A DNA stretch of 64,000 nt, taken from NCBI GenBank assembly GCA_030386875.1, contig CM059575.1, positions 20,422,293-20,486,292 on the forward strand. The letters run 5' to 3'. The DNA comes from Morinoia aosen. Its lineage: Eukaryota > Arthropoda > Malacostraca > Amphipoda > Talitridae. The notes under the pieces were generated by a model, which did no database searches, was not told the origin of the DNA, and saw only the letters and a list, made by a program, of their open reading frames with translations. The position numbers and the translations under genes were made by a program. Below are positions 6,486 through 61,599 of this stretch, one piece after another (the first letter of the stretch is position 1; each line of letters starts with the position of its first letter).

Positions 6486-6489
6486 TAGT

Positions 6490-14460: not shown

Positions 14461-14695
14461 AGCAGTAGTCACAGCACGACAATACCCACAAAGCCCGAAT
14501 GCGAAAGTCGTGCTGCCGTGGCAGTGCTCACGACGTTCAGGTCATCACGACCTCATAGAATATTGATGAAGCGCACCAAACTTGATGTACGCGCTGCCGC
14601 GATGACATAAACATGACCCCGCACCTTGACGCTGCGACTGCGAACTGCGGTGACAACCTGCCTGCTGGGCGCTTGATGATGTAGAGGTGTTCTGT
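14461..14695. other. GC-rich spacer between two arrays
   Basis: Unique, GC-richer sequence between two minisatellites. The minus-strand frame continuing from the 15-bp array codes through it but shows no known domain. It might be part of an unrecognised exon. Confidence 0.35.
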
Positions 14696-29219: not shown

Positions 29220-29322
29220 TCACTGCCGCTTCATGAGGTTGGAGTAACGCGACGTCTGGCGCACCATGAGCTCGTGGGGCGAGCCCTCCTCTACCAGCTC
29301 ACCGTCCTCCAGCACCAGCAGC
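29220..29322 (-). CDS. ABCC10: ABCC10-like exon E17: C terminus and stop
   Basis: 103 bp, phase 2 in, ending with TGA at 29220-29222. Acceptor gcactggtctcgcgcag. It encodes LLVLEDGELVEEGSPHELMV and RQTSRYSNLMKRQ. The V-L-[ED]-x-G-x-[LV]-x-E-x-x-[ST]-P-x-x-L block followed by a short helix with Y/F-x-x-[LM] is the usual end of ABCC NBD2. There is no PDZ-like C-terminal tail. Confidence 0.94.
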
Positions 29323-29517
29323 CTGCGCGAGACCAGTGCAACAGTGTTTGTGCTCTTACAGTGTAAAGAGAATGTGATTTCACTCAAATATTGCAGCAAA
29401 TGACGTACATTTCCCTATTTCGTCGTGTCATTTCAAGTTTTTGCGTAGTGGAGCACAAGAAATGATGCACTGGAAACCACAAAAAGTTTACTCGTCCTTA
29501 TAATGTAATGTGGTAGC

Positions 29518-29557
<40 letters not shown>

Positions 29558-35500: not shown

Positions 35501-38500
35501 AATACTTAATACTAAACGGAGCAACCGAAGCTTTACTGCAAAAAAGTTACCTAAATTCTTAAGGTACCCCGTCCTAAATCGACGCCAACAAAAGTTTGTC
35601 GAAGACCTTGTCTTAACATCTTTCAACTATGAGGGCAACAGTTCCATCATATGGGAAAAAATGAACAGACTGGAAACTAGTAGACACCAGGGGATTGTCA
35701 GATCCCTTTACAGCAGGGTAGAATATCAAGGAATTTCATTATGACCAAACACTATGGCACTTCGGAAATATGAGTTTGTAAGCTGTTTCCATCGTACCTC
35801 AAAATCTAAATCGGCATCCTAATTGCGATCAATAATAACAAATAGGTTATGAACATGTTATATTACGGAACCAATCACGAAAATGCAAATTTCATGAAGC
35901 TTTCCTATATACATTTAGTAAAAGAATGAACTTTGATTACATTGGAGCATCTCCATGCTATGACGACATCCTGGAGGTCACTGAATCGCCATGACTGCCA
36001 AAAGGAAATTCAAAGGAACTGAACTCTCGTTCAAATGATGACACATTGTATTTAAAGATTATTTTATAGCATAATTCTTTCTGTATTTGGACATAAATTA
36101 ACGTCACTGGAAAAAGAAAACTTTCAGCTTTACAAAGAGGTAATTTAAAAAAAAACATTTATAGTTTCAGTAAATCGTTGTTTCCCCAAATCGAAGTGGA
36201 CAGAATAAATTCGTCTTTTCAAAGGAAGATAATACTGCTCAAAATCAAGCTCAGGCCCAAGAAACCACTTTCTGGATATAAATGAACTGCGGAGAAGTTC
36301 CTTTGAAGTCATTGCAATGTTTCTACCCTGCCGCAACAACTTGGAGTGTGAGAATATTTGTCTTGGAATAAGAATTGGAAGGCTACATCAAGTTTATGAT
36401 AATCAAGACCTTACCAGCCAAATATATGGCTTAGAATTTAACATTATTCATTAAGAGTAATTGAAATGTAATAAGTTTGATTCACGACTTACTCATCTGA
36501 ACTTGCAGCAGGACTCTCTAAAAACTAATTGAGAATAATTTTATTTCTGTGCTTACGTTTGTGAATAAAATACTTTAATTTTTGCGTATCAAGTGCACAA
36601 AAAGAACAATTATGCCAACTATGCTATATATCTTACGGGCAACTGCATCCACTAAAGATGAAATCCAATAAAATGTAATAGTTATTTAGTGATAAGTACA
36701 ACTACCTATTTGAAAGATTTGTCTAGTTGTTAATGTTTATTCATAAAATTTAAAAGAAAAAGTTAACAAGATGTTTTACATTTAAAAGAATCGTAATTCG
36801 TAATAAAATATAAATTATTTTACTTGACAAACACATTTCAAACAAAGCCACTTAATATGCTTCCACTAGAGAATATGCAGCTATGCTACTTCATTTTTCC
36901 TTGAAATCGTATAATGCATATTTGATACGTAAGAATAAAAGATATTAAATGTCGACCTCATAATCATAAATGCACAATTTTTAAATCCTTATTTTATTTT
37001 CAATACTAATCCCTGATATCACAAGTTCTGAAGCTTGTATCTCAATGTAAGGGAGCACTAACAGAAGTGTTTCCAATCAACAATGCATCGCTACTAGTAT
37101 TACATTTTTTTGAATTTATATAATAACGCTATATGAAACCTCGATTACCGCATCGAAGCAAAAGCAGTTGTATTGTTTTCTCTCAATAATTTGTTGATAA
37201 TGAAATGGCTCAAATGAACCTTCCATCATAAAACAACTAGATAACTTTCAGATCAAACGGAATGAGAAGAAAAAGTGAACTGTTTTTACTGTTGTTTGCA
37301 AAAGTTTTTGAAACTTTTTTCTATTTTGTGTGCTCCAGTCCTATAACTACATCCCACTCTACAGGAATATTTCCCATAAATCGAGGCAAATTTCTGATTA
37401 TGGGAAAAAAAATTTTTAAAAAAAGCTTTATACTATATATTAATAAGTAACATTACTTTACATTTTCAGAGAATTATTCCACTTAACAAATTTTTTTACT
37501 ACCCTGAGGCAAATTTTACTACTTTTTACTACTTTTTTACTACTTTCCAAATTTTACTACTTTTTACGACTTTTTTTACTACTTTCCAAATTTTACTACT
37601 TTTTACTACTTTACAACCTAGTAGACACCCTGCACTGTATTCATTTTTATTTTATCCTTATACATTCTAACCTCATCTATTATACTCCAAACAGCTCTTT
37701 TGACTCGTTATTAACCTAAAAGCGTAGGAATGTCTAGATGGTAGCTTTGAATTGAAGAGACACGCACAGCAGAGACCTGCAACACAACCTACCATGACTG
37801 ACAGGACATGGGGACCACCTACCATGACTGACAGACATGGGGACCACCTACCATGACTGACAGGACTTGGGGACCACCTACCATGACTGACAGGACATGG
37901 GGACCACCTACCATGACTGACAGGACATGGGGACCACCTACCATGACTGACAGGACATGGGGACCACCTACCATGACTGACAGGACATGGGGACCACCTA
38001 CCATGACTGACAGACATGGGGACCACCTACCATGACTGACAGGACATGGGGACCACCTACCATGACTGACAGGACATGGGGACCACCTACCATGACTGAC
38101 AGGACATGGGGGCCACCTACCATGACTGACAGGACATGGGGACCACCTACCATGACTGACAGGACATGGGGACCACCTACCATGACTGACAGGACATGGG
38201 GACCACCTACCATGACTGACACACATGGGGACCACCTACCATGACTGACAAACATGGGGACCACCTACCACCACTGACAGGGCATGGAGACCACCTACCA
38301 CGACTGACAGAACATGGGGACCACCTACCATAACCGACAGGAACCACCTACCAGGCCTGACAAGACCACCTACCAGGCCTGACAAGACCACCTACCAGGC
38401 CAGACAGGACCACCTACCAGGCCAGACAGGACCACCTACCAAGAGTGACAGGACCACCTACCAGGACTGACAGGACCACCTACCAGGACTGACAGGACCA

Positions 38501-41500
38501 CCTACCAGGACTGACAGGACCACCTACCAGGACTGACAGGACCACCTACCAGGACTGACAGGACCACCTACCAGGACTGACAGGACCACCTACCAGGACT
38601 GACAGGACCACCTACCAGGACTGACAGGACATAGTACCCCCCAGGACTGACAGGACGTAGCACCGACCAGGACTGATGGCACTGGTGTGGTGTTGCAGGA
38701 GTGCCAGCGCTGTCACGCCCTGCAGCACACCCACTGCCAGCAGCTGCAGCCGCAGACTCAGCCACTGGCTGGCAGCCTGCACGCTCAGCTGGCAGCGCTG
38801 ACTGCACTCCAGCAGCCGCTCGCACTCGCTGCCAGCGCTGCCGGGGACAGGAGCCGTTAGTTCATAAATGAAATGGGCGAATTTGCTGTTAGCTCGTGCG
38901 GTGTTCGCGGGAACTTTGTGCCATGAGGGTATCAACGAGTGATAATGGGCGATGGGGGGATAATGGGCAATGAGGGGATGATGCGCGATGGGGGGATAAT
39001 GCGCGATGGGGGGATAATGCGCGATGGGGGGATAATGCGCGATGGGGGGATAATGCGCGATGGGGGGATAATGCGCGATGGGGGGATAATGCGCGATGGG
39101 GGGATAATGCGCGATGGGGGGATAATGCGCGATGGGGGGATAATGCGCGATGGGGGGATAATGCGCGATGGGGGGATAATGCGCGATGGGGGGATAATGC
39201 GCGATGGGGGGATAATGCGCGATGGGGGGATAATGCGCGATGGGGGGATAATGCGCGATGGGGGGATAATGCGCGATGGGGGGATAATGCGCGATGGGGG
39301 GATAATGCGCGATGGGGGGATAATGCGCGATGGGGGGATAATGCGCGATGGGGGGATAATGCGCGATGGGGGGATAATGCGCGATGGGGGGATAATGCGC
39401 GATGGGGGGATAATGCGCGATGGGGGGATAATGCGCGATGGGGGGATAATGCGCGATGGGGGGATAATGCGCGATGGGGGGATAATGCGCGATGGGGGGA
39501 TAATGCGCGATGGGGGGATAATGCGCGATGGGGGGATAATGCGCGATGGGGGGATAATGCGCGATGGGGGGATAATGCGCGATGGGGGGATAATGCGCGA
39601 TGGGGGGATAATGCGCGATGGGGGGATAATGCGCGATGGGGGGATAATGCGCGATGGGGGGATAATGCGCGATGGGGGGATAATGCGCGATGGGGGGATA
39701 ATGCGCGATGGGGGGATAATGCGCGATGGGGGGATAATGCGCGATGGGGGGATAATGGGCGATGGGGGGATAATGGGCGATGGGGGGATAATGGGCGATG
39801 GGGGGATAATGGGCGATGGGGGGATAATGGGCGATGGGGGGATAATGGGCGATGGGGGGATAATGGGCGATGGGGGGATAATGGGCGATGGGGGGATAAT
39901 GGGCGATGGGGGGATAATGGGCGATGGGGGGATAATGGGCGATGGGGGGATAATGGGCGATGGGGGGATAATGGGCGATGGGGGGATAATGGGCGATGGG
40001 GGGATAATGGGCGATGGGGGGATAATGGGCGATGGGGGGATAATGGGCGATGGGGGGATTAATGGGCGATGGGGGGATTAATGGGCGATGGGGGGATTAA
40101 TGGGCGATGGGGGGATTAATGGGCGATGGGGGATTAATGGGCGATGGGGGATTAATGGGCGATGGGGGGATTAATGGGCGATGGGGGGATTAATGGGCGA
40201 TGGGGGGATTAATGGGCGATGGGGGGATTAATGGGCGATGGGGGGATTAATGGGCGATGGGGGGATTAATGGGCGATGGGGGGATTAATGGGCGATGGGG
40301 GGATTAATGGGCGATGGGGGGATTAATGGGCGATGGGGGGATTAATGGGCGATGGGGGGATTAATGGGCGATGGGGGGATTAATGGGCGATGGGGGGATT
40401 AATGGGCGATGGGGGGATTAATGGGCGATGGGGGGATTAATGGGCGATGGGGGGATTAATGGGCGATGGGGGGATTAATGGGCGATGGGGGGATTAATGG
40501 GCGATGGGGGGAATAATGGGCGATGGGGGGAATAATGGGCGATGGGGGGAATAATGGGCGATGGGGGGAATAATGGGCGATGGGGGGAATAATGGGCGAT
40601 GGGGGGAATAATGGGCGATGGGGGGAATAATGGGCGATGGGGGGAATAATGGGCGATGGGGGGAATAATGGGCGATGGGGGGAATAACGGGCGATGGGGG
40701 GAATAACGGGCGATGGGGGGAATAACGGGCGATGGGGGGAATAACGGGCGATGGGGGGAATAACGGGCGATGGGGGGAATAACGGGCGATGGGGGGAATA
40801 ACGGGCGATGGGGGGAATAACGGGCGATGGGGGGAATAACGGGCGATGGGGGGAATAACGGGCGATGGGGGGAATAACGGGCGATGGGGGGAATAACGGG
40901 CGATGGGGGGAATAACGGGCGATGGGGGGAATAACGGGCGATGGGGGGAATAACGGGCGATGGGGGGAATAACGGGCGATGGGGGGAATAACGGGCGATG
41001 GGGGGAATAACGGGCGATGGGGGGAATAACGGGCGATGGGGGGAATAACGGGCGATGGGGGGAATAACGGGCGATGGGGGGAATAACGGGCGATGGGGGG
41101 AATAACGGGCGATGGGGGGAATAACGGGCGATGGGGGGAATAACGGGCGATGGGGGGAATAACGGGCGATGGGGGGAATAACGGGCGATGGGGGGAATAA
41201 CGGGCGATGGGGGGAATAACGGGCGATGGGGGGAATAACGGGCGATGGGGGGAATAACGGGCGATGGGGGGAATAACGGGCGATGGGGGGAATAACGGGC
41301 GATGGGGGGAATAACGGGCGATGGGGGGAATAACGGGCGATGGGGGGAATAACGGGCGATGGGGGGAATAACGGGCGATGGGGGGAATAACGGGCGATGG
41401 GGGGAATAACGGGCGATGGGGGGAATAACGGGCGATGGGGGGAATAACGGGCGATGGGGGGAATAACGGGCGATGGGGGGAATAACGGGCGATGGGGGGA

Positions 41501-44500
41501 ATAACGGGCGATGGGGGGAATAACGGGCGATGGGGGGAATAACGGGCGATGGGGGGAATAACGGGCGATGGGGGGAATAACGGGCGATGGGGGGAATAAC
41601 GGGCGATGGGGGGAATAACGGGCGATGGGGGGAATAACGGGCGATGGGGGGAATAACGGGCGATGGGGGGAATAACGGGCGATGGGGGGAATAACGGGCG
41701 ATGGGGGGAATAACGGGCGATGGGGGGAATAACGGGCGATGGGGGGAATAACGGGCGATGGGGGGAATAACGGGCGATGGGGGGAATAACGGGCGATGGG
41801 GGGAATAACGGGCGATGGGGGGAATAACGGGCGATGGGGGGAATAACGGGCGATGGGGGGAATAACGGGCGATGGGGGGAATAACGGGCGATGGGGGGAA
41901 TAACGGGCGATGGGGGGAATAACGGGCGATGGGGGGAATAACGGGCGATGGGGGGAATAACGGGCGATGGGGGGAATAACGGGCGATGGGGGGAATAACG
42001 GGCGATGGGGGGAATAACGGGCGATGGGGGGAATAACGGGCGATGGGGGGAATAACGGGCGATGGGGGGAATAACGGGCGATGGGGGGAATAACGGGCGA
42101 TGGGGGGAATAACGGGCGATGGGGGAATAACGGGCGATGGGGGAATAACGGGCGATGGGGGAATAACGGGCGATGGGGGAATAACGGGCGATGGGGGAAT
42201 AACGGGCGATGGGGGAATAACGGGCGATGGGGGAATAACGGGCGATGGGGGAATAACGGGCGATGGGGGAATAACGGGCGATGGGGGAATAACGGGCGAT
42301 GGGGGAATAACGGGCGATGGGGGAATAACGGGCGATGGGGGAATAACGGGCGATGGGGGAATAACGGGCGATGGGGGAATAACGGGCGATGGGGGAATAA
42401 CGGGCGATGGGGGAATAACGGGCGATGGGGGAATAACGGGCGATGGGGGAATAACGGGCGATGGGGGAATAACGGGCGATGGGGGAATAACGGGCGATGG
42501 GGGAATAACGGGCGATGGGGGAATAACGGGCGATGGGGGAATAACGGGCGATGGGGGAATAACGGGCGATGGGGGAATAACGGGCGATGGGGGAATAACG
42601 GGCGATGGGGGAATAACGGGCGATGGGGGAATAACGGGCGATGGGGGAATAACGGGCGATGGGGGAATAACGGGCGATGGGGGAATAACGGGCGATGAGG
42701 GAATAACGGGCGATGAGGGAATAACGGGCGATGAGGGAATAAAACGCAATGAGGGAATGGTAGGCCGTAAGTAGAAATAAGAACAGAAAATAAAAGGTGG
42801 AGAAAAGTATAAGCACTATAAAAAGCAAAGCGAGCACTACAAAAGTTAAGTGATAAGTCCCGAAGGCCTACCTATCACTTAGGTCAAGGATTCTCAAACT
42901 TTTTTCATCCAAGGACCACTTTTATTACACAAAAATAAGCTGAGGACCCCCTCACATGTGTTCCTCCCAGGAATATATGAATATATACATTGTACGCAGT
43001 TTCATATCAAGTCATGGAAAGCTGTAAATAAATACCTTAACTGCATCCACTGTTGAATTTGTTGAATTTTGCGGACCCCCTGTCCACAGTGGCACGGGCC
43101 TCTGGGGGTCTGCGGACCCTACTTTGAGAACTCCTGGCATGGGTAGCCTAACCTTATCTCCCCAGGGGGTAGTCCCCCAAATACTATCTACAAGATAGTA
43201 TCTGATAGTATCTATCTATAAGATAGTAAACCTAAAGCCTATCTATATGGCTAATGTCAATTGAATATGTCACCAAAGGAATCGATTGGTCGGATTATTA
43301 TTATTATTATATAAGAAAGTTTTAGCCTCCCTTATCCACGAAAAAGATGTTCCAAGAGAGGAGAGAGGAAGGCACCATTTAGTATGGAGTTGAGGGAACG
43401 CGGAATCTATGCACAAGGTGCACAGAAACCGTAAGCTAGGAAAGAAGTTCATGAAACAAGAAAAAATTTGAAGAAGAAAGTAGTAGGTGCTGAAAAACAG
43501 GACAGCAGTGAACCGAAAAAAGATGGTCCGTAACAAAACAAAAACCTATTTTATTACAACAAAAAGGAAGCCTACCTAACCTTTAGCTCAGGCCCTCACA
43601 TAGTCCCCCTGGGAGCGCCAAATCGATTGGTCGGAATAGAGTATATGTTAAGTTAGTCTAAGCTCCCCTCACCACAACAAAGGTGTTCCCAAGAGAAGAA
43701 GGACGAAGGCACCTTTTGGTATTGAATAAAGAAATGAGGAATCTATGCACAAGGTTCCCATAGCCTGCTCACAGCAGAAACCAGATTGACAAAAGTTAAT
43801 GAAACAAGATAAAAATTGAAAAAGAAAGTTAACACTTTGACCGTAACGTGAGCCACCGGTGGCCACAGAGGGGATTTTCATAATGCTGCTGACCGGCTAG
43901 TAGTTACAAACTACAAACTCAATTTTCATAAATACTATAAGCTAAATGAAGGCATGATATAGTTAATGTTTGCTATTTTCAAAATTTCCTAATGCAATTG
44001 ACTTTAAATTTGATTTGAATAACGAACTCCAGTTTAACCCATTGCGGTAAAGTGTTGAATGTGCTGAAAAAAGGACAGCTGTAAGGACAACTGAAAGAAG
44101 ATGGATGGTAAGAAAACAAAATACCTATTCTAGTCCAACAAAAGGAAAGCTTCACCTACTTTCACCTCAGAACCTCACACCTTTTTCACAAGAGCGCTAA
44201 TTCCATGAATAAAGCAGTTGTATCTTCATGATGGAATCAATCAATAGGCTAGAAAGAAAACGAACTAATCACCATGGACAGAAATGAACACGAAAACCAA
44301 ACAGGACCGGACAAATAAGGAATACAGGATAATGTTCAAAGACCAAACAAATGCCGGGAAGCTAAGAACAACCGCACATGATGTAGCAAATAAACATTTG
44401 CTGTACAGTAACACATATTGGTGGAGGAACACCCACCTTTTGACAAGTGGAAATGTTTACAACCAAACCTCAAGAAGCTAAGAACAACCTTACACAATGT

Positions 44501-53500: not shown

Positions 53501-56500
53501 AATCTATTCACGGTTTTAGTTTTCTCATTTAGTTTGAAAACATATTTCCCCCCCACGAATAAAATTAACGTATAGAAGAATAATTAATTCCAATCCAGTT
53601 CTTAATTAGCCCTATGGTAAATTTGGAACACATCTCTAATGGCATTAAAATCTTACGAAATATTCCGCATACATAAATTCAGTTTGTATGATAGCCTTGT
53701 CATGAACAAAAGCTTGAGAGTAGAAATCAATGAAAAAATAATGTTTCACAATGAACCGAATAAAAATCTTAGGTTTGTAATCTCATTCATGTTTGAAGTT
53801 ATTAAGTACTTTGAAAAAAAAACCAAACAATGCATCAATAAACTATTAGTAAAACAGTTAAGAGAAAATTTGTATTACCATCTCAGTTGGCGTCGTAATC
53901 ACTCGAGAACAGGTCGCTCGGGTTTGACTGTTTTCATATTTATTCCATTGTATTCACTTGGCTTGTAACTGTTTCCATATACATTCCATTGGACTCTACT
54001 AACAAGATTATGAAGAGAGAGACCCTTTCAAATTGTTACCTGATTAATCAGGGCATATCTCTGATGCTCCTCTAGCAGCACAAGCGGTTCCCCGTCACTC
54101 AGTCGCTTCTGGGCATCGACAGGGGTAGGTGGTGTTGGGGCAGTGCTTCCGCCTGATCCATTATCTGCATAAATACAATTATGAATTGCCATAAGGTCAC
54201 GTTTCATAATAAAGAGAGGGTAATGGAGTGGATGAAAAATATTAACAAGGCGGTAAATTTAAATCCTAACATAGCGGTACTCCTCTACAGGGATGACAAA
54301 TTGGCGGTTTTGCTGGCTCTATTGGTTCATATTAGCCACAAAAAGTCCCAAATTCAAGAAACCAGCTACTTCATTGTTTGCAAGTCTTCTCCAAGCTTTC
54401 TTTCCTGACGCCATTCCGTGACTCTTGCTCAAAACATCTCCCGCCTACATCACCTCTTTCTTTTTCTTGTTACCCGTCATAGCTCTTGTTCTTGCCTCAA
54501 ACCTTACCAATACTCACTTGCTGCGCAAAACCCACCAACATTTTGCAACCAGAGAGGTGATCATCTATCACACACAAAACCATGCAATCAACAAGTTAAT
54601 ACATAGCCATAAAGCCACCACACCTTTGTACAATCCTTCTTCGACACACGCTGAATTACTCACAAGGGGAACTCTTCTTAAAAACTTTGCCAAATTAATA
54701 GCGCAGTGAAGCAAGCACACAATGAATTAATTAGCATGGTGAAAGGCTTCTCACACCTCGAACGATTAGGAGGGCACTTGCGTTAGAGTTCACAAGAAAT
54801 TGTTTTTCCGGAAAAAATTTAAGAAAATAGTACACAGAATCACAGGGTGAAGAACAGCACACGAGAAACTAACCATAGCCGTTCAAGTTTTTTTCTATAC
54901 TTAGCAATGGAAAGGCATACATGGTAAACTAAAGACATTTCGAAGAGCTATTGTCCATCATTACGTTGCTGGTACTCCAAATTGAAAGCGCGTCAACACG
55001 GACACGTAGGACAGTCATCAGAGATGCCAGACGCACCTCCGCTCAGCGCGGCGGCAGCGCTGCCTCTGCGAGGCACGGCGCCCGTCTGCTGCCAGGCGTG
55101 CGTGATGGGCTCCTCCTGCCACCAGTCGCGCAGCAGCTCTTGCTGCGAGAGGAAGTGCGGCAGCACCTCATCAGGAGTTCCTGGCAAATATAGGATTTTG
55201 TACACTTCTACAAGCTTTTCAAAATGATCTCAGTAAAAAATTGCACTCATATATACTTTTAGACTGTGTCTACTCGCTGAAAAGTCACTTAATATATCCC
55301 ATTCTAGAAGATGGCACTTTTACATTATTTTGGTTTTTTATTTATACTTGGACAAAGACATGGTCTAACAGAATCTTCCTACATAGTTTGTTTTCACTTG
55401 TACATGCACAAACACGCGTACCAACACATAGCTCAGGTGATCAGTTTCTGTGCATCAATATACACCTAAAATACAATGACACACATTCCGCTTGCATCCA
55501 AGGGAAAACACACCAAAATGAGTGACAAAATGTCGCAAAATGAGTGACAAAACATAACCAAAATGAGTGACAAAAAGTAGCCAAAATAAGTGACAAAATG
55601 TAGCCAAAATGAGTGACAAAACGCACCAAAACGAGTGACAAAACGAACCAAAATGAGTGACGCGCCCTCTGTCAAGCCTGACGATGGAGTTGCAGCGCGT
55701 GGTGAGGTGCACGTGATGCGTGGTGAACAGCACGGTCTTGCCCTTCAGGAAACCCATGATGGCTTCCCTCATGATGTGCCGAGCTACGGGCCCGTCGACG
55801 CTCGACATGACCCCGTCCAAAAGGTACACGCTCTTCTGCTGGTACAGAGCACGGGCCAGCGCGACCCTCGTCCTCTGACCGCCACTGAGACACTGACCGT
55901 TTTCCCCGCAACTCGTAGCGTCCCCTCGAGCAAGTTTGCTAATGTCTTCGTGCAGTGCGCACGCGTGGACAACCGCATCGTAACGGTTCTTGTCGTACGC
56001 GCTTCCGAACAAAATATTTTCCCTGATGCTTTGATTTTGGATCCAAGGGTCTTGGGCGGCGTAACCGAACCCGTGATGCAAAGATGCAACAGCCACCACA
56101 CCTTCAGTCTTCACCAGCTCAGCAAGGATTGCGTTTATAAGCGACGTCTTCCCACAACCAGTTTTGCCTATTATCGCGACTATGTCTCCTTTCGTTACGT
56201 TCAGGCTAATTTTCTTCAGCGTATTCTTCACTGGGGGCATTTTTGCAGAATTTCTTCTTCGAATTTCACTTGAACGAACGCCAGGGTTTACGTAACCAAC
56301 ACGGGGAGCTGTATTTAGACCATCATCATCGTCTCCATGGACAGCATTGATTTGTCGTTCATTGTCGAGACTTTCATGGTCTCGATCACTCACCAAATCT
56401 TCTTCATCACTCCCACGATCGCCACCAAAAAGTTTCCTGGCTTTGAAACCATGAATCTTGCTTCCACCGGACTTTTTGGATTTATGTCTCGAAGACTTGT

Positions 56501-59500
56501 GGGCTGACGAGCCCACATGTTTTTGGGACTCTGAAGCTTTGCCAGGTCTGTAGCCATCTCCATCGTCGTCGTCAAGCTCATCAGGCGGCAGAGCGTCTGT
56601 GGGACACGGAAGATCGCCACCAGAGCCTGGTGGGTGCCATGAGAAAGATGCCTCATGGAACACGATCTGAAGGTCTGATGAAGGAGACGACATCTCGGCC
56701 ACTATGGTGTAGTATTGTGACAAGTCCTGGTCTTGTTCCTGTAAACCAAAGCAGAGAATACAATTTTCTGATCACGGTTGCTAGAAAAGCTTGAAATGTT
56801 AGCACCAGTGTCGGTTTAGTGTAGAACTGCATCAAAGAAAAGTTAAGTCTAAGACTTAATTGTAACAGATAGAAGAACCTCAAGTTATGTACATCCAGAA
56901 GGTACTTCATACTAAGCACTTTCCAGGTAACTTTGTTTGATCATCGAGCACATTAATATTAGAAATATAAAAAACTAACATCAGTAGCAAATGCATCACA
57001 TCACTCTTACTTCTATGTACTTTTATATTTATACTCGCACGGGCCATCTCGAAACCGGCTCAGTAAAGGCTAGAATGAAGTTATTGAAACTTTGGCACAC
57101 AACCAATAATTGCTTTGGACACGGCAACATAATATTCCCACACAAAGGATTAGTGTTCCCAGAAACATCGTTTGATGTAGGTGAACGAAGACAGTTCTTT
57201 AAAAGGCAGTCCTCAAAATTACAAATGAAGCACTGTAATTCAACAAATATTAAGAAAAGTAAACAACCATTACTTACCTAAGTGACGACCTATGTTCCCT
57301 ATATCAACTTGAATTTTTAAATTATTATTACAATCTACAAATTATTATATTTGAAAGATTCAGGTTTGACAGACTTGAAGACTTATTTACCCCAAGCCTA
57401 TGCATTGTTAGAAGATATACAAAAACTCTGAAAATCAACAACATTGGCATAGTGAGCCAAATAAGCAGAGAGGCTTCTATAGCTTCCTATGTCTCACGCT
57501 ACAACTCGGTCTCATAAACCAAAAGAGCAGGGCCTCACTTCAAGAAGCTTTCCAATCCTCCTGTTGGATACGATGCCCTCCACCAGCCCGTTGAGGGCCC
57601 AAGGGAAGGCATTGAGAGGCATCACGAGCATGTTGAAGAGCGCAACTGCAGTGAACACGCGGGCTGGGTTCATCTCGTTGCCGAGGCCTATATAAGTGCA
57701 GAACGTCGCGATTGGGATCAGTACGGGCGTAGCTGCCCAGAAATACACACATGCCGCGTCCAGGTACTTCCGGCCAGCCAGAGCCTTCAGTTCTCCCTGC
57801 AAATAATGAAAGAGGAATTAGTAGAAGAAAATACTACATCCAATGAATTACAAAGGAAAAAACGAGATACAAAGAGAACTTGGAAGAAAAGAGTACATTC
57901 ATCGAATCACACATAGGTGTAGAGAATAACGTTCCGGGTGTTGTAGCAAGAAATACTCAACACGTCCAAGTTTAACAGACAAAGAGATGCCTGTAAGACA
58001 CATTTTTTAATACTACATAAAAGCAGGTTAACAAAACAATTGTTTTTGACTGAGCAGAGGTATGCTGACCTCTCTCTCGACGTCAATGGAGTCAGCGAAG
58101 AGCCGCTGCCAGCAGTGCATGTGCACCGCCTTCACCATCGACAGCGCCTCCGCCACGATGGTCACGCGCCGGTCTTTGTACGACATCATGCGCAAGCTCA
58201 GCTCGCCTGCACACCATTGTAAGTCATCAAGTGACACTCTCACATCATATTTAATGCACGTTCTTAACATCTATGTCTGTACTTATATTAATGTGCCTAC
58301 TGACATTAATGTGCCTACTGACATTAATGTGCGTACTTACATTGATGTGTGTACTCAATACTAGGGTAAGCACTTAACATCAAGGTACATGTACTTATAT
58401 TTATGAGTGTAATTATATTAATGTGCGTACTTATATTAATGTATGAACTTGACATCAATGTATGGAATAAATAAAATAGATTGATTTCTGGGAAATCTCA
58501 CTTTTAGGAAAAAAAGGAAAACCAACGTGGCTATGAATATCATGATAAAAAACAAACTATAAATCTTCTGAATAAATCGGATGTAATTTCAAGAGAATCC
58601 ATTACATCCGATTCATTTAGAAGATTTATAGTTAAAATGTTTTAATACTTTGATTTATTGAATTTCAGAACACTGAAGATGGATTTTTTATAATCCGAAA
58701 CGTTTGTTTTTTATCATGATATTCTTAGCCACGTTGGTTTTCCTTTTTATCCCAATGTATGGAATAGTTGAAGTAGCACCAATGTAGTTTGAGAAGTGAC
58801 AATGTAGCAATATGTCAACAAAGTAAATGTAGCACAGTTGTAGGTAATGTAGACTCGTTCCGCGTAGACATCAATGTAGACACGAAGACATCAATGCAAT
58901 CGATATTTATCCTGTACCGCTGCACTCAGCGTCTATGTGACAGAGCAAAATCAATTTCAAATACCTCAACAATGGCCTGAGCAGTTGCTCTCAGTCTCAT
59001 GAAGAAAAAGACTGTCTCAGCCGCAGTCTATGTAGAGCTGCTGTATTGATCAGAATGTGAAGACCCACGGCTTTGATATAAGATTGTATTCGTTCTGAAT
59101 GGTAGATGGAATTAGTACTACATAGATTCATGATAATATCGCAGTTCCATGTAAAATTAATGAGCTCCTCGCTTTTGAAAATTTAATAACACTTTTATTG
59201 ACGCATGTGATAAGCATCAAATATTCACTCAGTGCCAACGCATTTAGTAATGAAGAAATATATCAAGCAGCGGACCTTACATGTAGCGCTTTCTGAACGC
59301 CTCACACAAACTAGTGAACTATTTAATTACCTAATGAAGGAGAATGTTTGCATAGGTAGAGAAAGAATATGCTCAAATAAATTTCTTACTAAACCGCACC
59401 AATTTTACCAACAGAGAACCGTGAAGTGGCTGAAGCTAATAAAGGCTAAAAAATGAAAGTAATAGTGAGTCTTCTCGGAGGTAAACTTGATCACAAGTAG

Positions 59501-60161
59501 TAACATCTAACTGGGATGAAAGTAATGCATCTATTCAACTATTTCATCAGTATGAAACCTATGCAGCAACAAAACAAGAGGCGTATTCACTCGACTCATT
59601 GCCAGTGAAGCTAACAAGTGACAAAACAACAAACCTATTTCCCAATTTCATCAGCAGGAAACCTATGACGTCACACTCACAGAATAGCATACCCACTCAC
59701 CAATATTTTCAGTGAGGAACCTATAAAACCACAAAATAGCATACCCAATCACCGATCTTGCCAGCAAAGAACCTATAAAGCCACAAAATAGCACACCCAC
59801 TTATCAATCTCGACAAGAAGGAACCTATAAAGCCACAAAACAGCAGACTTACTCACCGATCTTGCCAGCAAGGAACCTATAAAGCCACAAAATAGCACAC
59901 CCACTCATCAATCTCGACAAGAAGGAACCTATAAAGCCACAAAACAGCAGACTTACTCACCGATCTTGTCAGCAAGGAACTTGTTAAGAGGCAGGAGAAG
60001 CAGGACGATGGCAACACCGGCCAGGAAGGCCCAGCCGACCTGGACGTAGAGCAGATACAGGGTCACCAGCAGCTGCAGAGGCAGGCTCCAGCACGCGTGC
60101 AGGCTGGGGCCGATGTTCAGCAGCCGCTCCGTGTCAGTGCTCATCAGCGTCAGGATCTCAC
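29220..60161 (-). CDS. ABCC10: ABCC10/MRP7-like ABC transporter, 17 exons, 5' part missing
   Basis: Spliced gene for a full-length ABC exporter of subfamily C, expected to move amphipathic anions or conjugated compounds across a membrane using ATP. The exons, joined at GT-AG sites with matching phases, give 4331 coding bases ending in TGA at 29220-29222. Domain order is end of TMD1 (E1-E3), NBD1 (E4), linker (E4-E7), TMD2 (E7-E12), NBD2 (E13-E17). Family placement rests on stretches I recall as typical of ABCC10: KYLDAACVY after the TMD1 loop, SPVYSHFTQTLAGLPTIRA, SQW-x-SLRLQL and GIVGLVVSYALTISGFL. ABCC1/ABCC4 fit less well. The first transmembrane segments lie beyond 64000. Two large insertions make the protein longer than the roughly 1,500 residues usual for the family. 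Membrane location (plasma, vacuolar or lysosomal) cannot be read from the sequence. The substrate is unknown. Confidence 0.9.
29323..30967 (-). other. Intron between E16 and E17
   Basis: AT-rich intron without recognisable coding sequence. It contains one (AGT)n microsatellite. Short open frames at 30341-30912 lack any domain and show intron-like base composition. Confidence 0.7.
29512..29557. repeat. (AGT)n microsatellite
   Basis: About 15 near-perfect copies of the trinucleotide in the last intron of the ABCC10-like gene. Confidence 0.95.
30968..31107 (-). CDS. ABCC10: ABCC10-like exon E16: NBD2 Walker B to H-loop
   Basis: 140 bp, phase 0 in and phase 2 out. Acceptor catggtttaacattgcag, donor GTGACAG|GTCAGT. 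It encodes IICVDEGTASLDPLTEDAVQ, RVLTDAFRNTTVLVIAHRLR and TLNDCDR. Walker B (IICVDE) keeps the catalytic glutamate, the D-loop is SLD and the switch histidine is in IAHRL. NBD2 therefore has the residues for ATP hydrolysis, in contrast with the degenerate Walker B of NBD1. Confidence 0.96.
31596..32058 (-). CDS. ABCC10: ABCC10-like exon E15: NBD2 Q-loop to signature, long insertion
   Basis: 463 bp, phase 2 in and phase 0 out. Acceptor ttatgatgtgtttcag, donor GCGAAG|GTAATA. It encodes TAMAVVSQNPALFSGTVRKN (Q-loop glutamine in SQNP), the helix SAIWSALKACYIQSALKDAV, then about 75 extra residues rich in Ser, Arg, Glu and Gly, and finally LGRCLSQGERQLLVLARALL. The signature reads LSQGE where most ABCC NBD2 domains have LS-x-GQ. 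The insertion lies between the alpha-helical subdomain and the signature loop, where family members usually have only some 25 residues. The reading frame is open throughout, so it is coding and not an unrecognised intron. Confidence 0.93.
32389..32580 (-). CDS. ABCC10: ABCC10-like exon E14: NBD2 Walker A
   Basis: 192 bp, phase 2 in and phase 2 out. Acceptor ttgaaaacgtgcag, donor AGGCTCAG|GTACGA. It encodes RPYHSYALHNLTFRVGANEK, IGILGRTGAGKSSIFSALFR and LVELNRGAIYIDNVDIAGLS. Walker A GRTGAGKSS is intact, as are the strand before it (KIGILG) and the I-x-I-D-[NG]-[VI]-D-I block. A retroposon copy (32642-33150) sits 61 bp upstream of its acceptor. Confidence 0.96.
32642..33150 (-). mobile_element. 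Retroposon-like family, copy 10, with internal duplication and TSD
   Basis: Lies in the intron between E13 and E14. Flanked by tatacctgagagtt (32628-32641) and tatacctgaaagtt (33151-33164). The 5' part of the element is present twice in tandem (about 32877-33012 and 33013-33150), each ending in the palindrome cctgagggg. The duplication sits inside the target-site duplications, so it either predates insertion or arose later by slippage. Confidence 0.88.
33165..33809. other. Intron remainder, no gene
   Basis: AT-rich intron between copy 10 and E13; nothing recognised. Confidence 0.7.
33810..33990 (-). CDS. ABCC10: ABCC10-like exon E13: start of NBD2
   Basis: 181 bp, phase 1 in and phase 2 out. 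Acceptor gtctggtcttcag, donor GCTACAG|GTAATG. It covers the variable link between the V-E-R helix and NBD2 (DGALALSLGAYGGVRVDQRA, then a Ser/Ala/Pro-rich stretch) and the first strand of NBD2, IRFEQVCLRYR. The aromatic tyrosine in LRYR is the expected A-loop residue that stacks on the ATP adenine. The link is longer than in most ABCC10 proteins I recall. Confidence 0.92.
34437..34571 (-). CDS. ABCC10: ABCC10-like exon E12: last TMD2 helix and NBD2 lead-in
   Basis: 135 bp, phase 1 in and phase 1 out. Acceptor ttttccttcgcag, donor GATAGGG|GTCAGT. It encodes IVGLVVSYALTISGFLNSVV, SSFTDTEREFISVERMDEYI and RGDR. G-[IL]-[VA]-G-L-x-[VL]-S-Y-A-L and E-x-x-[FM]-[IV]-S-V-E-R-[MIL]-x-E-Y are the conserved end of TMD2 and the linker helix before NBD2 in all ABCC proteins. 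Confidence 0.96.
34572..37787. other. Intron between E11 and E12, no gene
   Basis: AT-rich. Positions 34590-34870 contain three to four loose copies of a 65-75 bp segment with tgactaactta and gcaacaatgtctga. Positions 37489-37617 carry a tttactactttt-type repeat. Confidence 0.65.
37788..38335. repeat. 30-bp minisatellite, outer part of the E11 donor array
   Basis: About 18 copies of a 29-30 bp unit with core taccatgactgacaggacat. On the gene strand each unit reads CAGTCATG followed by GTAGGTGG, a variant of the 22-bp units next to E11. Confidence 0.97.
38336..38668 (-). repeat. 22-bp repeat copying the E11 splice donor
   Basis: About 14 units. On the gene strand each typical unit is CAGTCCTG|GTAGGTGGTCCTGT; the exon ends in CAGTCCTG and the intron starts GTCGGT. 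The first two intron units are 26 bp, the rest 22 bp. Several units carry a donor better than the real one (GTAGGT). Confidence 0.93.
38668..38837 (-). CDS. ABCC10: ABCC10-like exon E11: TMD2 helix pair
   Basis: 170 bp, phase 2 in and phase 1 out. Acceptor cctgtccccggcag, donor CAGTCCTG|GTCGGT. It encodes SAGSECERLLECSQRCQLSV, then QAASQWLSLRLQLLAVGVLQ and GVTALALLQHHTSAISPG. The [NS]-Q-R-C-Q and Q-W-L-x-[IL]-R-L-Q-L elements match what I recall of ABCC10. A second AG nine bases inside is also in frame, but the outer acceptor gives the same spacing from IRA to the SxW motif (28 residues) as human ABCC10 from memory, so I prefer it. Donor choice is fixed by phase: only the first of two adjacent GTs leaves one base. 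Its donor is copied into the array at 38336-38668. Confidence 0.9.
38942..42735. repeat. 3.8-kb G-rich 18/19-bp minisatellite in the E10-E11 intron
   Basis: About 205 copies. Zones in order: 38942-39755 18-bp ggggggataatgcgcgat; 39755-40055 18-bp with atgggcgat; 40055-40505 19-bp ggggggattaatgggcgat; 40505-40685 ggggggaataatgggcgat; 40685-42110 ggggggaataacgggcgat; 42115-42695 18-bp gggggaataacgggcgat; 42695-42735 gagggaataacgggcgat. Each change is one base or one indel. The G-rich strand is the template of the ABCC10-like gene. Open frames up to 793 codons are by-products. Confidence 0.98.
42884..43137. mobile_element. hAT-like MITE
   Basis: Ends caaggattctcaaactttt and actttgagaactcctgg are imperfect inverted repeats, followed inside by ggaccac and preceded by gcggaccct. 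This is the layout of Charlie-type hAT non-autonomous elements as I recall them (terminal ttctcaaact and cggaccc). An 8-bp target duplication is not visible. Confidence 0.65.
43295..43620 (-). mobile_element. Retroposon-like family, copy 11, 5'-truncated with perfect TSD
   Basis: Begins (plus strand) with the tail ttattattattattata and ends within the 5' region at gggagcgcca. Flanked by perfect 15-bp repeats aatcgattggtcgga at 43280-43294 and 43621-43635. The perfect duplication suggests it is one of the youngest copies. Confidence 0.93.
43650..44236 (-). mobile_element. Retroposon-like family, copy 12, interrupted
   Basis: Old copy whose two parts (43650-43832 and 44055-44236) are separated by a piggyBac-like MITE inserted at TTAA between gaaagt and aggtgctgaaaa in family coordinates. 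Confidence 0.8.
43833..44054. mobile_element. piggyBac-like MITE family, copy 2
   Basis: 222 bp, left flank TTAA (43829-43832), right flank TTGA. Ends cactttgaccgtaa and cattgcggtaaagtg are inverted repeats. TTAA target and terminal inverted repeats are typical of piggyBac-type elements. It is nested in retroposon copy 12. Confidence 0.75.
44421..44686 (-). repeat. About 100-bp repeat copying the E10 splice donor
   Basis: Two diverged complete copies (from 44421 and 44522) and a short third piece precede the real junction. Each carries, on the gene strand, a version of TTGTCAACAG|GTGGGTCCTCC (TTGTCAAAAG|GTGGGTGTTCC; TTGTCAACAG|GCGGGTGCTCC). The rest of the unit shares caaacc, aagctaagaacaa and gtaaag. 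Confidence 0.85.
44611..44648. repeat. Perfect 16-bp hairpin
   Basis: gggtaaagtaacggtg at 44611-44626 and its exact reverse complement at 44633-44648, separated by 6 bases. It lies at the break between the third partial repeat copy and the E10 donor. Confidence 0.95.
44687..44803 (-). CDS. ABCC10: ABCC10-like exon E10: TMD2 second intracellular loop
   Basis: 117 bp, phase 2 in and phase 2 out. Acceptor acacgcgtgtgtgcag region, donor GTCAACAG|GTGGGT. It encodes YTSRDLRRLYSLSLSPVYSH followed by FTQTLAGLPTIRAMRVVN. [ST]-[SR]-R-[ED]-[LV]-[KR]-R-L followed by S-P-[LV]-[YF]-S-H and [QT]-x-L-x-G-L-x-T-I-R-A is a signature of ABCC TMD2. The donor region is copied twice more in the intron beginning here, together with a 16-bp hairpin. 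Confidence 0.95.
45400..45493 (-). mobile_element. Retroposon-like family, copy 13, 5' fragment
   Basis: Only the 5' end remains: cctacctag, agctcgacacctcacat, ggcgctaattcccatagata, acttgtatcctcct. Confidence 0.7.
46146..46460. mobile_element. Foldback element, related to 19283-19900
   Basis: Left arm (from about 46165) and right arm (to about 46450) are near reverse complements, for example gacagttttagaatccttg with caaggattctaaaactgtc. The same text occurs in the element at 19283-19900 (gacagttttggaatccttg). Confidence 0.8.
46690..46895. mobile_element. Half copy of the foldback element
   Basis: Shares gcttag-type, tttcgaaaat, gtgctagaacaaaaacaaag and gttttagaatccttggaac with the two foldback elements, but without the second arm. 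Confidence 0.65.
46970..46989. repeat. C-tract/G-tract palindrome
   Basis: cccccccctg followed directly by a run of nine further G. A run of C, one T, then a run of G on one strand, able to form a tight hairpin. Confidence 0.9.
47177..47610 (-). CDS. ABCC10: ABCC10-like exon E9: TMD2 helices and coupling loop
   Basis: 434 bp, phase 0 in and phase 2 out. Acceptor cgaatttccag, donor TTTTATAG|GTGAGC. It encodes IYFLTVYCCIAVAHSIFTLV, an RAARNLHRKLL element, then MAFFENNPIGRIINRFSSDL and the downstream helices (AGLAGSIILTVYGLPWMILV). The P-[MV]-[ASTV]-F-F-[ED]-x-[NT]-P-x-G-R-I-[IL]-N-R-F-S-x-D block is the hallmark of ABCC TMD2. The last residues, YNIQHFYR, run directly into E10 (YTSRDLRRL). The exon is strongly coding in character and is the best-supported TMD2 exon. 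Confidence 0.96.
47740..48143 (-). mobile_element. Retroposon-like family, copy 14, with TSD
   Basis: Reverse copy of the older subfamily with the additional internal segment. Flanked by agagagattcgc at 47728-47739 and 48144-48155. It lies in the intron between E8 and E9. Confidence 0.8.
48156..51020. other. Intron between E8 and E9, remainder
   Basis: AT-rich without recognisable exons apart from a short 40-bp repeat (48724-48845). Confidence 0.65.
48724..48845. repeat. 40-bp tandem repeat, three copies
   Basis: Units start at 48724, 48764 and 48804, each containing gtactagcttgcgaggattc. Confidence 0.95.
51035..51128. repeat. 22-bp repeat just inside the intron after E8
   Basis: About four copies of caacacccaacacaccacacag, beginning about 14 bases from the E8 donor. 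It does not clearly copy the exon end. Confidence 0.9.
51142..51308 (-). CDS. ABCC10: ABCC10-like exon E8: extracellular loop of TMD2
   Basis: 167 bp, phase 1 in and phase 0 out. Acceptor tttcaaaacttactcag, donor GTGCGG|GTCAGT. It encodes a His/Pro/Trp-rich loop segment (WGNADWMPPSPGETGRDVAN ... HPNVPHHSHAHPFSW). I infer it because E7 leaves one unpaired base that cannot join E9, while this exon takes phase 1 and returns phase 0, exactly what E9 needs. ABCC10 has a long, poorly conserved outer loop here. No homology could be used, so this is the least certain exon. It may be alternatively skipped. Confidence 0.7.
51766..51986. mobile_element. piggyBac-like MITE with perfect 14-bp ends
   Basis: TTAA (51762-51765), then ccctttaacgccca; right end tgggcgttaaaggg, then TTAA (51987-51990). 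The ends are exact reverse complements. No coding capacity. A different family from 43833-44054. Confidence 0.88.
52262..52556 (-). repeat. 27-28 bp repeat copying the E7 splice donor
   Basis: About eight units of acactggacacaagaggcac plus aactcaaa. On the gene strand the real junction is CAGCGCT|GTGAGTTCTGCCTCTTG; units read CAGTGTTTTGAGTTGTGCCT and similar. Two units (52280-52310 and 52466-52497) also keep exon-like sequence; the second matches some 20 bp of the end of E7. Confidence 0.85.
52557..52830 (-). CDS. ABCC10: ABCC10-like exon E7: first TMD2 helix
   Basis: 274 bp, phase 0 in and phase 1 out. Acceptor aatgactgcag, donor CAGCGCT|GTGAGT. It encodes the end of the linker (DAEEDQDLSQSF...DREHQETGSLAW), then the first TMD2 helix (VYLTYLAAVGYWLAFITLMA) and DLWLAYWVTN, which corresponds to the D-x-W-L-[AS]-x-W motif after that helix in ABCC proteins. 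Two N-glycosylation sequons appear, NLT and NST; NST lies in the predicted outer loop. An alternative internal donor (ACTCAG|GTCTTC) would also keep the frame by skipping E8 but fits the donor consensus less well. Confidence 0.9.
54040..54164 (-). CDS. ABCC10: ABCC10-like exon E6: linker between NBD1 and TMD2
   Basis: 125 bp, phase 1 in and phase 0 out. Acceptor gtatttatgcag, donor AATCAG|GTAACA. It encodes a linker rich in Gly, Ser, Thr and Pro (NGSGGSTAPTPPTPVDAQKR) followed by an acidic amphipathic part (LSDGEPLVLLEEHQRYALIN). No domain is recognised. The call depends on phase agreement with both neighbours, on good splice sites, and on its place where ABCC proteins carry a variable linker. 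Conservation would need a comparison with related species. Confidence 0.8.
55037..55180 (-). CDS. ABCC10: ABCC10-like exon E5: end of NBD1 and start of linker
   Basis: 144 bp, phase 1 in and phase 1 out. Acceptor atatttgccag, donor GCGGAG|GTGCGT. It completes the last NBD1 segment: RGRVTHF from E4 plus GTPDEVLPHF resembles the G-R-[LV]-x-x-x-G-P-P-S-E-I-L-P end of ABCC10 NBD1. A Trp/Gln-rich stretch (RDWWQEEPITHAWQQTG) and an Ala/Gly-rich tail (GSAAAALSG) follow and are probably part of the flexible linker. GC content is much higher than in the flanking introns. Confidence 0.85.
55181..55512. other. Intron between E4 and E5
   Basis: AT-rich; the 22-23 bp repeat begins at 55513. Nothing else recognised. 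Confidence 0.7.
55513..55662 (-). repeat. 22-23 bp repeat spanning the E4 splice donor
   Basis: Seven units, with agtgac at 55521, 55543, 55566, 55589, 55612, 55634 and 55656. On the gene strand a unit is GTCACTCATTTTG|GTTNNTTTT, and the last unit is the real exon end and donor. Four units keep the G|GT of a potential donor, others have G|GC. Confidence 0.93.
55649..56738 (-). CDS. ABCC10: ABCC10-like exon E4: complete NBD1 with long insertion
   Basis: 1090 bp in one exon, phase 0 in and phase 1 out. Acceptor ggtttacag, donor CATTTTG|GTTCGT. Within its 363 codons: first strand FHEASFSWH (27-35), a charged low-complexity insertion at about 38-168 (runs of D, then K/R/S-rich, then D/E-rich), Walker A GKTGCGKTS (191-199), Q-loop AAQDPWIQ (227-234), signature LSGGQRTRVALARAL (284-298), degenerate Walker B VYLLDG (304-309), D-loop SVDG (313-316) and H-loop TTHH (339-342). 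Most ABCC NBD1 domains have D (or E) after the Walker B aspartate; here the codon at 55812-55814 is GGG, glycine. NBD1 is usually the weakly hydrolysing site, so this may be tolerated. The donor is embedded in a 22-23 bp repeat. Confidence 0.95.
57539..57796 (-). CDS. ABCC10: ABCC10-like exon E3: last two TMD1 helices
   Basis: 258 bp, phase 0 to phase 0 (86 codons). Acceptor cattatttgcag, donor CTTGAA|GTGAGG. It encodes KYLDAACVYFWAATPVLIPI, then a short loop and a second helix pair region with PARVFTAVALFNMLVMPLNA. The stretch KYLDAACVY is one of the strongest hints of ABCC10 rather than another ABCC class. The exon ends shortly before NBD1 with VSNRRIGKLLE, the position of the V-S-x-x-R-I helix that leads into the first ATP-binding domain in this subfamily. 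Confidence 0.93.
58070..58206 (-). CDS. ABCC10: ABCC10-like exon E2: TMD1 cytoplasmic coupling helix
   Basis: 137 bp, phase 1 in and phase 0 out. Acceptor ggtgtgcag, donor GAG|GTCAGC. It encodes ELSLRMMSYKDRRVTIVAEA followed by LSMVKAVHMHCWQRLFADSI. The pattern M-x-x-KD-R-R-V-x-x-x-x-E-x-L-x-x-[MI]-[KR]-x-[VI]-x-x-x-x-W is the conserved intracellular loop of ABCC TMD1 that contacts the nucleotide-binding domains. It joins E1 to give ADKIGELSLRMM and E3 to give VEREGELKAL without a frame break. Confidence 0.92.
58206..58455. repeat. Degenerate 18-20 bp repeat near E2
   Basis: From about 58275: copies of cattaatgtgcctactga and variants, in the intron upstream of E2. Looser related text (aatgtag, aatgta) continues at 58753-58890. 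Confidence 0.75.
58470..58752 (+). mobile_element. Penelope-like remnant with inverted ends and hammerhead-like motif
   Basis: 283 bp inserted between 14-bp direct repeats caatgtatggaata (58456-58469 and 58753-58766). The outer arms ggaaaaccaacgtggct and agccacgttggttttcc are inverted, as is an inner pair (ataaatcttct / agaagatttat). Within it cactgaagatgg, ggatt/aatcc and ccgaaacgtttg follow the order of a type-I hammerhead core, a known feature of Penelope-like retroelements. Confidence 0.6.
58665..58715 (+). ncRNA. Candidate hammerhead ribozyme motif
   Basis: Order of core parts: CTGAAGA (conserved CUGANGA), stem II ggatt-loop-aatcc, GAAA, then a very short possible stem III (ac-gttt-gt). 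Stem I pairing is weak by eye. The tiny stem III is what I recall for Penelope-type hammerheads. Activity cannot be judged. Confidence 0.45.
58767..59529. other. Intron between E1 and E2, no gene
   Basis: AT-rich; nothing recognised apart from loose aatgtag text at its start. Confidence 0.65.
59530..59960 (-). repeat. 52-bp repeat copying the E1 splice donor
   Basis: Clear 52-bp units from about 59700, older ones back to about 59530. Two types alternate (104-bp higher-order period: actcac at 59851 and 59955). Type A on the gene strand is TTCCTTGCTGGCAAGATCG|GTGAGT; the exon ends TTCCTTGCTGACAAGATCG|GTGAGT. Type B has TTCCTTCTTGTCGAGATT|GATGAGT, a broken donor. Each unit is preceded by GGCTTTATAG, an acceptor-like sequence. 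Confidence 0.93.
59961..60161 (-). CDS. ABCC10: ABCC10-like exon E1: TMD1 core
   Basis: 201 bp, entering in phase 1 and leaving in phase 1. Acceptor gatgttcag, donor ATCG|GTGAGT. It encodes GEILTLMSTDTERLLN followed by two hydrophobic spans joined by YVQVGW (around LPLQLLVTLYLLY and AFLAGVAIVLLLLPL). The motif T/S-D-T/S-E-R-L-L-N before the helix pair is typical of ABCC TMD1 (coupling region before the TM9/TM10 pair). It is the most 5' exon I can find. The missing upstream exon must end in phase 1, so that its last base and GT make a codon, expected to be glycine. Its donor is copied in a 52-bp repeat (see 59530-59960). Confidence 0.9.
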
Positions 60162-60908: not shown

Positions 60909-61271
60909 TAGATTAAATTAGATGTTAGTTTACGCCATCCTAACCCCAACAAAGGCTACCCAAAGAGAGGAAGCAGGAAGGCCACATTTAGTATGAACTT
61001 AATGGAACGCGGAATCTTTGCACAGCAAAGTGCGTAGAAACATTAAATTAAGAAAGAAGTTTATAAAACAATAATAAAGTTGAAGAATAAAGTAATAGGG
61101 GCTGAAAAACAGGATAGCAGTGAACCGAAATAGATGGTTCGTAACAAAATAACAAACCTATTTCATTTTAACAAAAAGAAGCCCTTCCTAACCTTTTAAT
61201 TTGGGCCTCAAATATTCCACCTAGGAGCGCCAATTCCCATAGAAATGATAGGTGTAACCCCTTTAGGGGAA
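60909..61271 (-). mobile_element. Retroposon-like family, copy 15, with TSD
   Basis: Full-length reverse copy ending in ccctttagggg. Flanked by perfect 14-bp repeats gaaagactgaaggt at 60895-60908 and 61272-61285. Lies in the intron upstream of E1. Confidence 0.9.
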
Positions 61272-61599
61272 GAAAGACTGAAGGTGACGTTTGAAAAAAC
61301 AGGGAACGTTTATGCTCCTACGAACACTACTTCAGTTGAAAATTTTGGAGAATGTAGTCTCATGATTTAGAAAGGTTTCATTTCACGTGGAACGAATTCA
61401 CGTGGAACGAAAGAATTATAGATTATACAACGAGAACGAACGCACGCACGCTCTCTACAAAGATATCGTCAGGGCATGCGAGTTAGTTGTTAATAATAGG
61501 AATTTAAAATATTTTGAAAGATTTTGGCAAAATCATAATCGAGGTAAATGCCTATAAATAAATGTAATTTGAGCTAAAAACAATAATTGGAGTATCAGA

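What the first reader, a model, noticed from the sequence alone, without database searches (positions are those of the whole stretch)
37788..60161. Minisatellites repeatedly seeded at splice donors of one gene
At five of the 16 visible donors of the ABCC10-like gene (E1, E4, E7, E10, E11) the intron starts with a tandem repeat whose unit contains the last 7-25 bases of that exon plus the donor GT. Units differ fully in sequence and length (52, 22-23, 27-28, about 100, 22-30 bp), so they arose independently. No other exon edge (acceptors) shows this clearly in the window. A mechanism that duplicates DNA at 5' splice sites, or a selective advantage for spare donors, would explain it. I cannot tell whether this has been described before.
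Basis: seen in the sequence. Interest (0 to 1): 0.9.

Follow-up and report, generated by a model that had tools for sequence, protein, structure and literature searches.

The report
Repeat arrays straddling exon ends
In one transporter gene of an amphipod crustacean, short tandem repeats have grown over the ends of five of sixteen exons, copying the splice signal; a single case of the same build is known in people, but several in one gene is unusual and its cause is still open.

Summary
The gene is a minus-strand ABCC10-like transporter, most likely of an amphipod (71% identical to the Hyalella azteca protein). At 5 of 16 donors (E1, E4, E7, E10, E11) the exon-donor junction recurs just downstream; at 0 of 17 acceptors. 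Within the gene the placement is non-random: 5 of 11 strong arrays begin at a donor, 0.33 expected (P = 2e-5). More widely, 9 of 11 lie within 105 bp of an exon edge; donor-side arrays may enter the exon, acceptor-side arrays stop 36-104 bp short.

'Spare donors' are not supported: 2 of 59 downstream donor-like sites keep an intact frame, and GT is not specially retained in 21 copies. The introns do not look gained by duplication.

Best reading: ordinary minisatellite growth, tolerated at donors, excluded from acceptors. The excess at exon edges is unexplained; the gene was picked because it looked striking, and a donor hotspot stays possible. No genome-wide test: the own-genome search was busy at all 12 attempts. 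Human CBS has a 31-bp array of the same build.

The parts
29220..60161 (-). ABCC10-like ABC transporter gene, 17 exons in the window (the 5' part was not found in the window)
   Evidence: open frame over E1-E16; Hyalella azteca P0001 71% identity; E17 end
59678..59980 (-). E1 donor array, 52/104-bp unit, begins 20 bases inside E1; weak, degenerate copies (23 of 40 bases) go on to about +442
55505..55661 (-). E4 donor array, 22-23-bp unit, begins 13 bases inside E4; own donor GTTCGT scores lowest of 16
52330..52563 (-). E7 donor array, about 28-bp unit, begins 7 bases inside E7; GT kept in 1 of 5 copies
44330..44697 (-). E10 donor array, about 100-bp unit, junction copies at +149 (GC) and +250 (GT); ends approximate, set by eye
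   Evidence: D4, D6
37787..38676 (-). E11 donor array, 22-bp then 30-bp units, begins 9 bases inside E11; 32 copies of GTAGGT after a weak own donor GTCGGT
51026..51136 (-). E8 array, 22-bp unit, begins 5 bases into the intron, does not contain the exon end
58247..58442 (-). array ending 40 bp before the E2 acceptor
52881..53012 (-). array ending 50 bp before the E7 acceptor
38942..42742 (-). 19-bp array, 205 copies, ending 104 bp before the E11 acceptor
34608..34900 (-). array ending 36 bp before the E12 acceptor

Best explanation
These are ordinary minisatellites, born by slippage or unequal exchange in a repeat-rich amphipod genome, that straddle 5' splice sites. When a duplication spans a donor, the first donor keeps its exon and frame, the extra copies fall into the intron and are nearly neutral, and the array can grow into the intron. 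At acceptors the branch point, pyrimidine tract and AG are disturbed, so arrays survive only further upstream. Shown here: the anatomy, the donor/acceptor asymmetry, the frame consequences, no special retention of GT in the copies. Inferred: slippage, near-neutrality, use of the first donor, purging at acceptors. This model alone does not explain why arrays begin at donors more often than inside introns; a general bias of array birth toward GC-rich exon edges is my proposed addition and is not shown.
For: Tandem arrays are common outside the gene too. 0 of 17 acceptors are covered, and four arrays stop 36-104 bp before acceptors. Exon tails of E1, E4, E10, E11 align with the Hyalella protein, so the exon is taken as the source and the repeats as derived. 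In 21 copies at E1, E4, E7 and E10, G and T are retained at 57% and 81%, the 58th percentile of neighbouring base pairs. 57 of 59 donor-like sites would give a frameshift or premature stop. Exon GC is 0.52-0.70 against 0.35 in array-free introns.
Against: The excess at donors over intron interior (5 against 0.33) needs something beyond tolerance. At E11 all 34 downstream sites scoring 4 or more beat the exon's own donor, and at E4 all 3 do, so it is unclear how the first donor wins. In human CBS a 68-bp duplication of an intron 7/exon 8 junction is tolerated with the more distal site used (PMC2630376), so such duplications are not always purged. The GC-edge idea gets mixed support from extragenic arrays: 60-bp flanks of 0.52, 0.42, 0.48, 0.55, 0.55 on the left and 0.28, 0.40, 0.30, 0.28, 0.37 on the right, background 0.36-0.37.
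Confidence: 0.5

Rival explanations
1. Chance plus selection of a striking window: arrays are common here and the first reader picked the gene in which several fell on donors.
For: 28.5% of intron positions are self-similar; the P values are for one gene chosen after the fact; donors against acceptors alone is P = 0.018.
Against: P = 2e-5 for array starts at donors; 2.5e-5 with 16 arrays at the lower threshold.
Confidence: 0.22
2. Donor-directed duplication: something about transcribed 5' splice sites (R-loops, breaks, pausing, local sequence) makes them preferred birth sites of minisatellites.
For: Five unrelated units at donors and a sixth array starting 5 bp into intron 8; about 15-fold excess. 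The six donor-side arrays are poor in A on the sense strand (0.01-0.20) against 0.29 in array-free introns.
Against: Arrays also crowd upstream of acceptors (4 of 11 within 36-104 bp, 0.83 expected, P = 0.005), which points to exon proximity in general. Two of the four acceptor-side arrays are A-poor too (0.14, 0.20). No genome-wide count.
Confidence: 0.18
3. The copies act as U1 landing sites that help a weak authentic donor (intronic enhancer by U1 binding), most plausibly at E11 and E4.
For: E4 and E11 have the weakest donors of the 16 (1.6 and 3.8); E11 is followed by 32 GTAGGT copies. U1 binding downstream of PAH exon 11 promotes use of the natural donor (PMC5933811, passages).
Against: E1 and E10 have strong donors (8.3, 9.6); array-bearing donors are not weaker as a group (P = 0.51). 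GT is not specially retained in copies at E1, E4, E7, E10. The scoring matrix is from recalled frequencies.
Confidence: 0.06
4. Selection for spare (back-up) donors.
For: Copies with good scores exist at E1 (+104, +260), E10 (+250) and E11 (many).
Against: 2 of 59 sites, E4 +135 and E8 +60, would keep frame without a premature stop; E7 keeps GT in 1 of 5 copies.
Confidence: 0.02
5. Introns newly gained by tandem duplication of an AG/GT site.
For: The arrays contain many AG and GT near each other.
Against: Donor and acceptor edges of introns 1, 4, 7, 10, 11 agree at 8, 9, 5, 11, 5 of 30 bases; the other 11 introns at 5-13.
Confidence: 0.02

Closest known systems
Human CBS 31-bp VNTR, c.1444_1467+7(16_21) (PMC2630376, passages; placed at exon 13-intron 13 in a table of PMC1395315, passage)
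   Same: By its name the unit runs from 24 exon bases to 7 intron bases and so carries the donor; 16-21 copies
   Different: One donor of the gene; polymorphic in copy number. Here five donors of one gene carry unrelated units; polymorphism unknown
Internal tandem repeats at exon-intron boundaries of human duplicated genes (PMC2812944, abstract and passages)
   Same: Minisatellites (units of 30 bp on average over all its variable repeats) also at exon-intron boundaries; 27 intron modifications kept after inspection
   Different: Recent human paralogs with novel introns; the words donor and acceptor do not occur in its main text, so no donor/acceptor count
Intron gain by tandem duplication (PMC4974935, abstract and outline; PMC2891723, passages)
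   Same: Short tandem duplication over splice signals
   Different: Makes a new intron; here the two intron ends do not match
Intronic U1 binding downstream of PAH exon 11 (PMC5933811, passages)
   Same: Donor-like sequence downstream of a real donor, rarely used as a splice site in the minigene
   Different: One site shown by experiment; here an untested possibility

Membership tests
Donor-spanning minisatellite (CBS type) | Repeat unit contains exon end plus 5' splice site | tested here: met
   E1, E4, E7, E10, E11; E7 exon end less certain
Donor-spanning minisatellite (CBS type) | Several tandem copies | tested here: met
   E1 about 6, E4 7, E7 about 5, E11 about 14 of 22 bp plus 19 of 30 bp; E10 three junction copies, the original included
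Donor-spanning minisatellite (CBS type) | Copy number varies between individuals | not testable with these tools
   one assembly only
Donor-spanning minisatellite (CBS type) | Effect on splicing or expression | not testable with these tools
   no RNA data
Intron gained by tandem duplication | Matching sequence at the two ends of the intron | tested here: not met
   5-11 of 30 in register at the five introns
Intron gained by tandem duplication | Intron absent in relatives | not testable with these tools
   no eukaryote genome could be reached
In-frame alternative (tandem) donors | Alternative donors keep the reading frame | tested here: not met
   2 of 59

The most novel reading that the evidence does not exclude
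In this amphipod lineage 5' splice sites are preferred birthplaces of minisatellites: tandem duplication starts at the exon end again and again, so that many genes carry private arrays of copied donors, with arrays excluded from acceptors.
Probability: 0.2. Interest if true: 0.75.

Novelty: new member of a known kind. Interest (0 to 1): 0.45.

Why it matters
Each array is a known kind of thing; five in one gene would, if general, mean that splice sites shape where repeats are born or survive. It would also offer natural tests of donor choice: at E11 a weak donor stands before 34 better-scoring sites, none of which would keep the protein intact. The question can be tested directly with one annotated amphipod genome and RNA-seq.

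Tried and rejected
Own-genome search (genome search, 'own') was sent and answered 'busy' each time: no genome-wide test, no relatives' introns. Other genes in the window as a control: 10 of the 201 ORFs (longer ones outside arrays, chosen by eye) gave no Pfam family; no Rfam family; no tRNA. So I had no second gene; the other 191 ORFs were not searched. Donor strength as cause: P = 0.51. Intron length: P = 0.11. RNA folding of the E11 array: z = -2.68, 0 of 100 shuffles as stable, but own donor and copies are similarly buried (unpaired 0.14 against 0.11-0.27), so folding does not tell which is used. Copies fading with distance from the exon: clear at E1 only. One search's frame test used a wrong E17 edge and was replaced. 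Rows dropped: one search left out periods under 7; one search left out two of 18 arrays because they lie inside exons (60102-60051, 38836-38736). Literature: 10 answered searches, seen as listings with abstract starts (12 of 15 shown, 15 of 25), listed no title on recurrent donor-spanning arrays in one gene; searches found no paper. The library lacks most subscription papers. A 2007 PNAS report on human introns from tandem arrays (Zhuo and others) is recalled, not read.

Full report
What it is. The one gene I recognised in the window is an ABCC10-like ABC transporter on the minus strand. Sixteen exons join into one open frame of 1408 aa, 71% identical to the Hyalella azteca ABCC10 protein over the whole of it; named decapod proteins follow at 46-48% over 63-64% of it. 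The source is therefore most likely an amphipod other than Hyalella azteca; the species is not known to me. Exon 17 completes the C-terminus.

Observation. I asked, for each exon edge, whether the 22 bases around it (10 exon, 12 intron) recur within 400 bp. At five donors, E1, E4, E7, E10 and E11, the best match is 17 to 21 of 22, always downstream; the other 11 donors and the 16 acceptors tested reach at most 14. One search counts 5 of 16 donors and 0 of 17 acceptors at 16 of 22 or more. Windows of 30 bases give the same counts; with 40 bases E8 is added as a sixth donor. The units have no evident common sequence or length. At E1, E4, E10 and E11 the exon tail is coding sequence that aligns with Hyalella, so I take the exon as the source.

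Is it more than chance? The introns are full of repeats: 28.5% of intron positions are self-similar by the same measure, 16.6% without the 19-bp array. So the number 5 of 16 is not remarkable by itself. The position of the array starts is. TRF (periods of 7 or more) finds 11 arrays with score 100 or more in the introns. Five begin between 25 bases inside an exon end and 10 bases after it, against 0.33 expected when arrays are placed at random in the introns (2 in 100,000 placements as extreme). Nine of 11 lie within 105 bp of some exon edge against 2.26 expected (P = 2e-5). With the 16 intronic arrays of score 50 or more, four begin 5-25 bases inside an exon (0.28 expected, P = 2.5e-5), and nine lie within 105 bp (3.25 expected, P = 0.0008; if arrays may reach 100 bases into exons, 4.54 expected, P = 0.013). 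E10 is not in these counts because TRF missed it. All these P values are for one gene chosen after it had looked striking.

A wider pattern. Four arrays end 40, 50, 36 and 104 bp before the acceptors of E2, E7, E12 and E11; 4 such against 0.83 expected, P = 0.005. Self-similarity by distance says the same: averaged over introns it is 0.34 in the first 20 bases after donors and 0.29-0.35 out to 200, but 0.00 in the last 20 bases before acceptors and 0.07 at 20-60, rising to 0.26 at 100-200. Arrays thus gather near exons on both sides, but run into the exon only at donors. Two of the 11 strong arrays lie in the interior of an intron.

Spare donors? Using a donor matrix from recalled frequencies, I listed 59 GT sites with score 4 or more in the arrays after E1, E4, E7, E8, E10 and E11. 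Two (E4 +135, E8 +60) would give an in-frame product without a premature stop. In 21 copies at E1, E4, E7 and E10 the G and T are kept in 57% and 81%, against 71% for the other intron positions of the window. In the E11 array GT is kept in 26 of 27 copies, but these are homogeneous and I count them as one event. Selection for spare donors is therefore unlikely.

What stays odd. E4 and E11 have the two weakest donors of the 16, and E11 is followed by 34 sites that score higher. Predicted folding does not separate the real donor from the copies. Either exon context decides, or the copies are used and the products destroyed, or U1 binding to the copies helps the first donor, as shown for one site in PAH (PMC5933811, passages). 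Array-bearing donors as a group are not weaker (P = 0.51).

Not new introns. If these introns had arisen by tandem duplication, their two ends should match. They agree at 5-11 of 30 bases; the other introns at 5-13.

Known relatives. Human CBS has a 31-bp VNTR written c.1444_1467+7(16_21); the name means 24 exon bases plus 7 intron bases, 16-21 copies (PMC2630376, passages; placed at exon 13-intron 13 in a table of PMC1395315). [quoted passage not shown] the paper calls the sites donors, though the junction named is intron-exon). That shows that a duplication at an intron end can also be tolerated and weakens my account of the asymmetry. Human duplicated genes have minisatellites at exon-intron boundaries (PMC2812944, passages). 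In the talitrid amphipod Trinorchestia tandem repeats are 6.18% of the genome (PMC7062882, passage). The listings of my 10 searches showed no report of many donor-spanning arrays in one gene.

Verdict. I favour ordinary minisatellite growth, tolerated at donors and excluded at acceptors, with an unexplained bias toward exon edges. Whether there is a real donor hotspot can only be decided genome-wide; the own-genome search did not answer at any of 12 attempts.

Noticed in passing
window 38942-42742: A 3.8-kb array of 205 copies of a 19-bp unit, 99% matches, in intron 10.
   Followed up: no
window 44611-44648 (minus strand, intron 10): By eye, a perfect 16-base inverted repeat (GGGTAAAGTAACGGTG and its complement) lies inside the first E10 unit.
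   Followed up: no
window 43330-43725, 47774-47867; similar text near 32700-33160 and 61000-61300: A dispersed repeat family in introns and outside the gene (68-89% alike between copies; the others by eye).
   Followed up: no
window 46143-46912: Inverted and direct copies of a 106-115-base element in intron 9.
   Followed up: no
window 1-1794, 4397-6487, 14179-15525, 61903-64000: Large GC-rich (0.50-0.65) minisatellites outside the gene.
   Followed up: partly
window 59678-59980: Each of five E1 units ends in an acceptor-like TTATAG before the next copy of the exon tail, so the array reads like a row of 20-base exons; probably chance.
   Followed up: no
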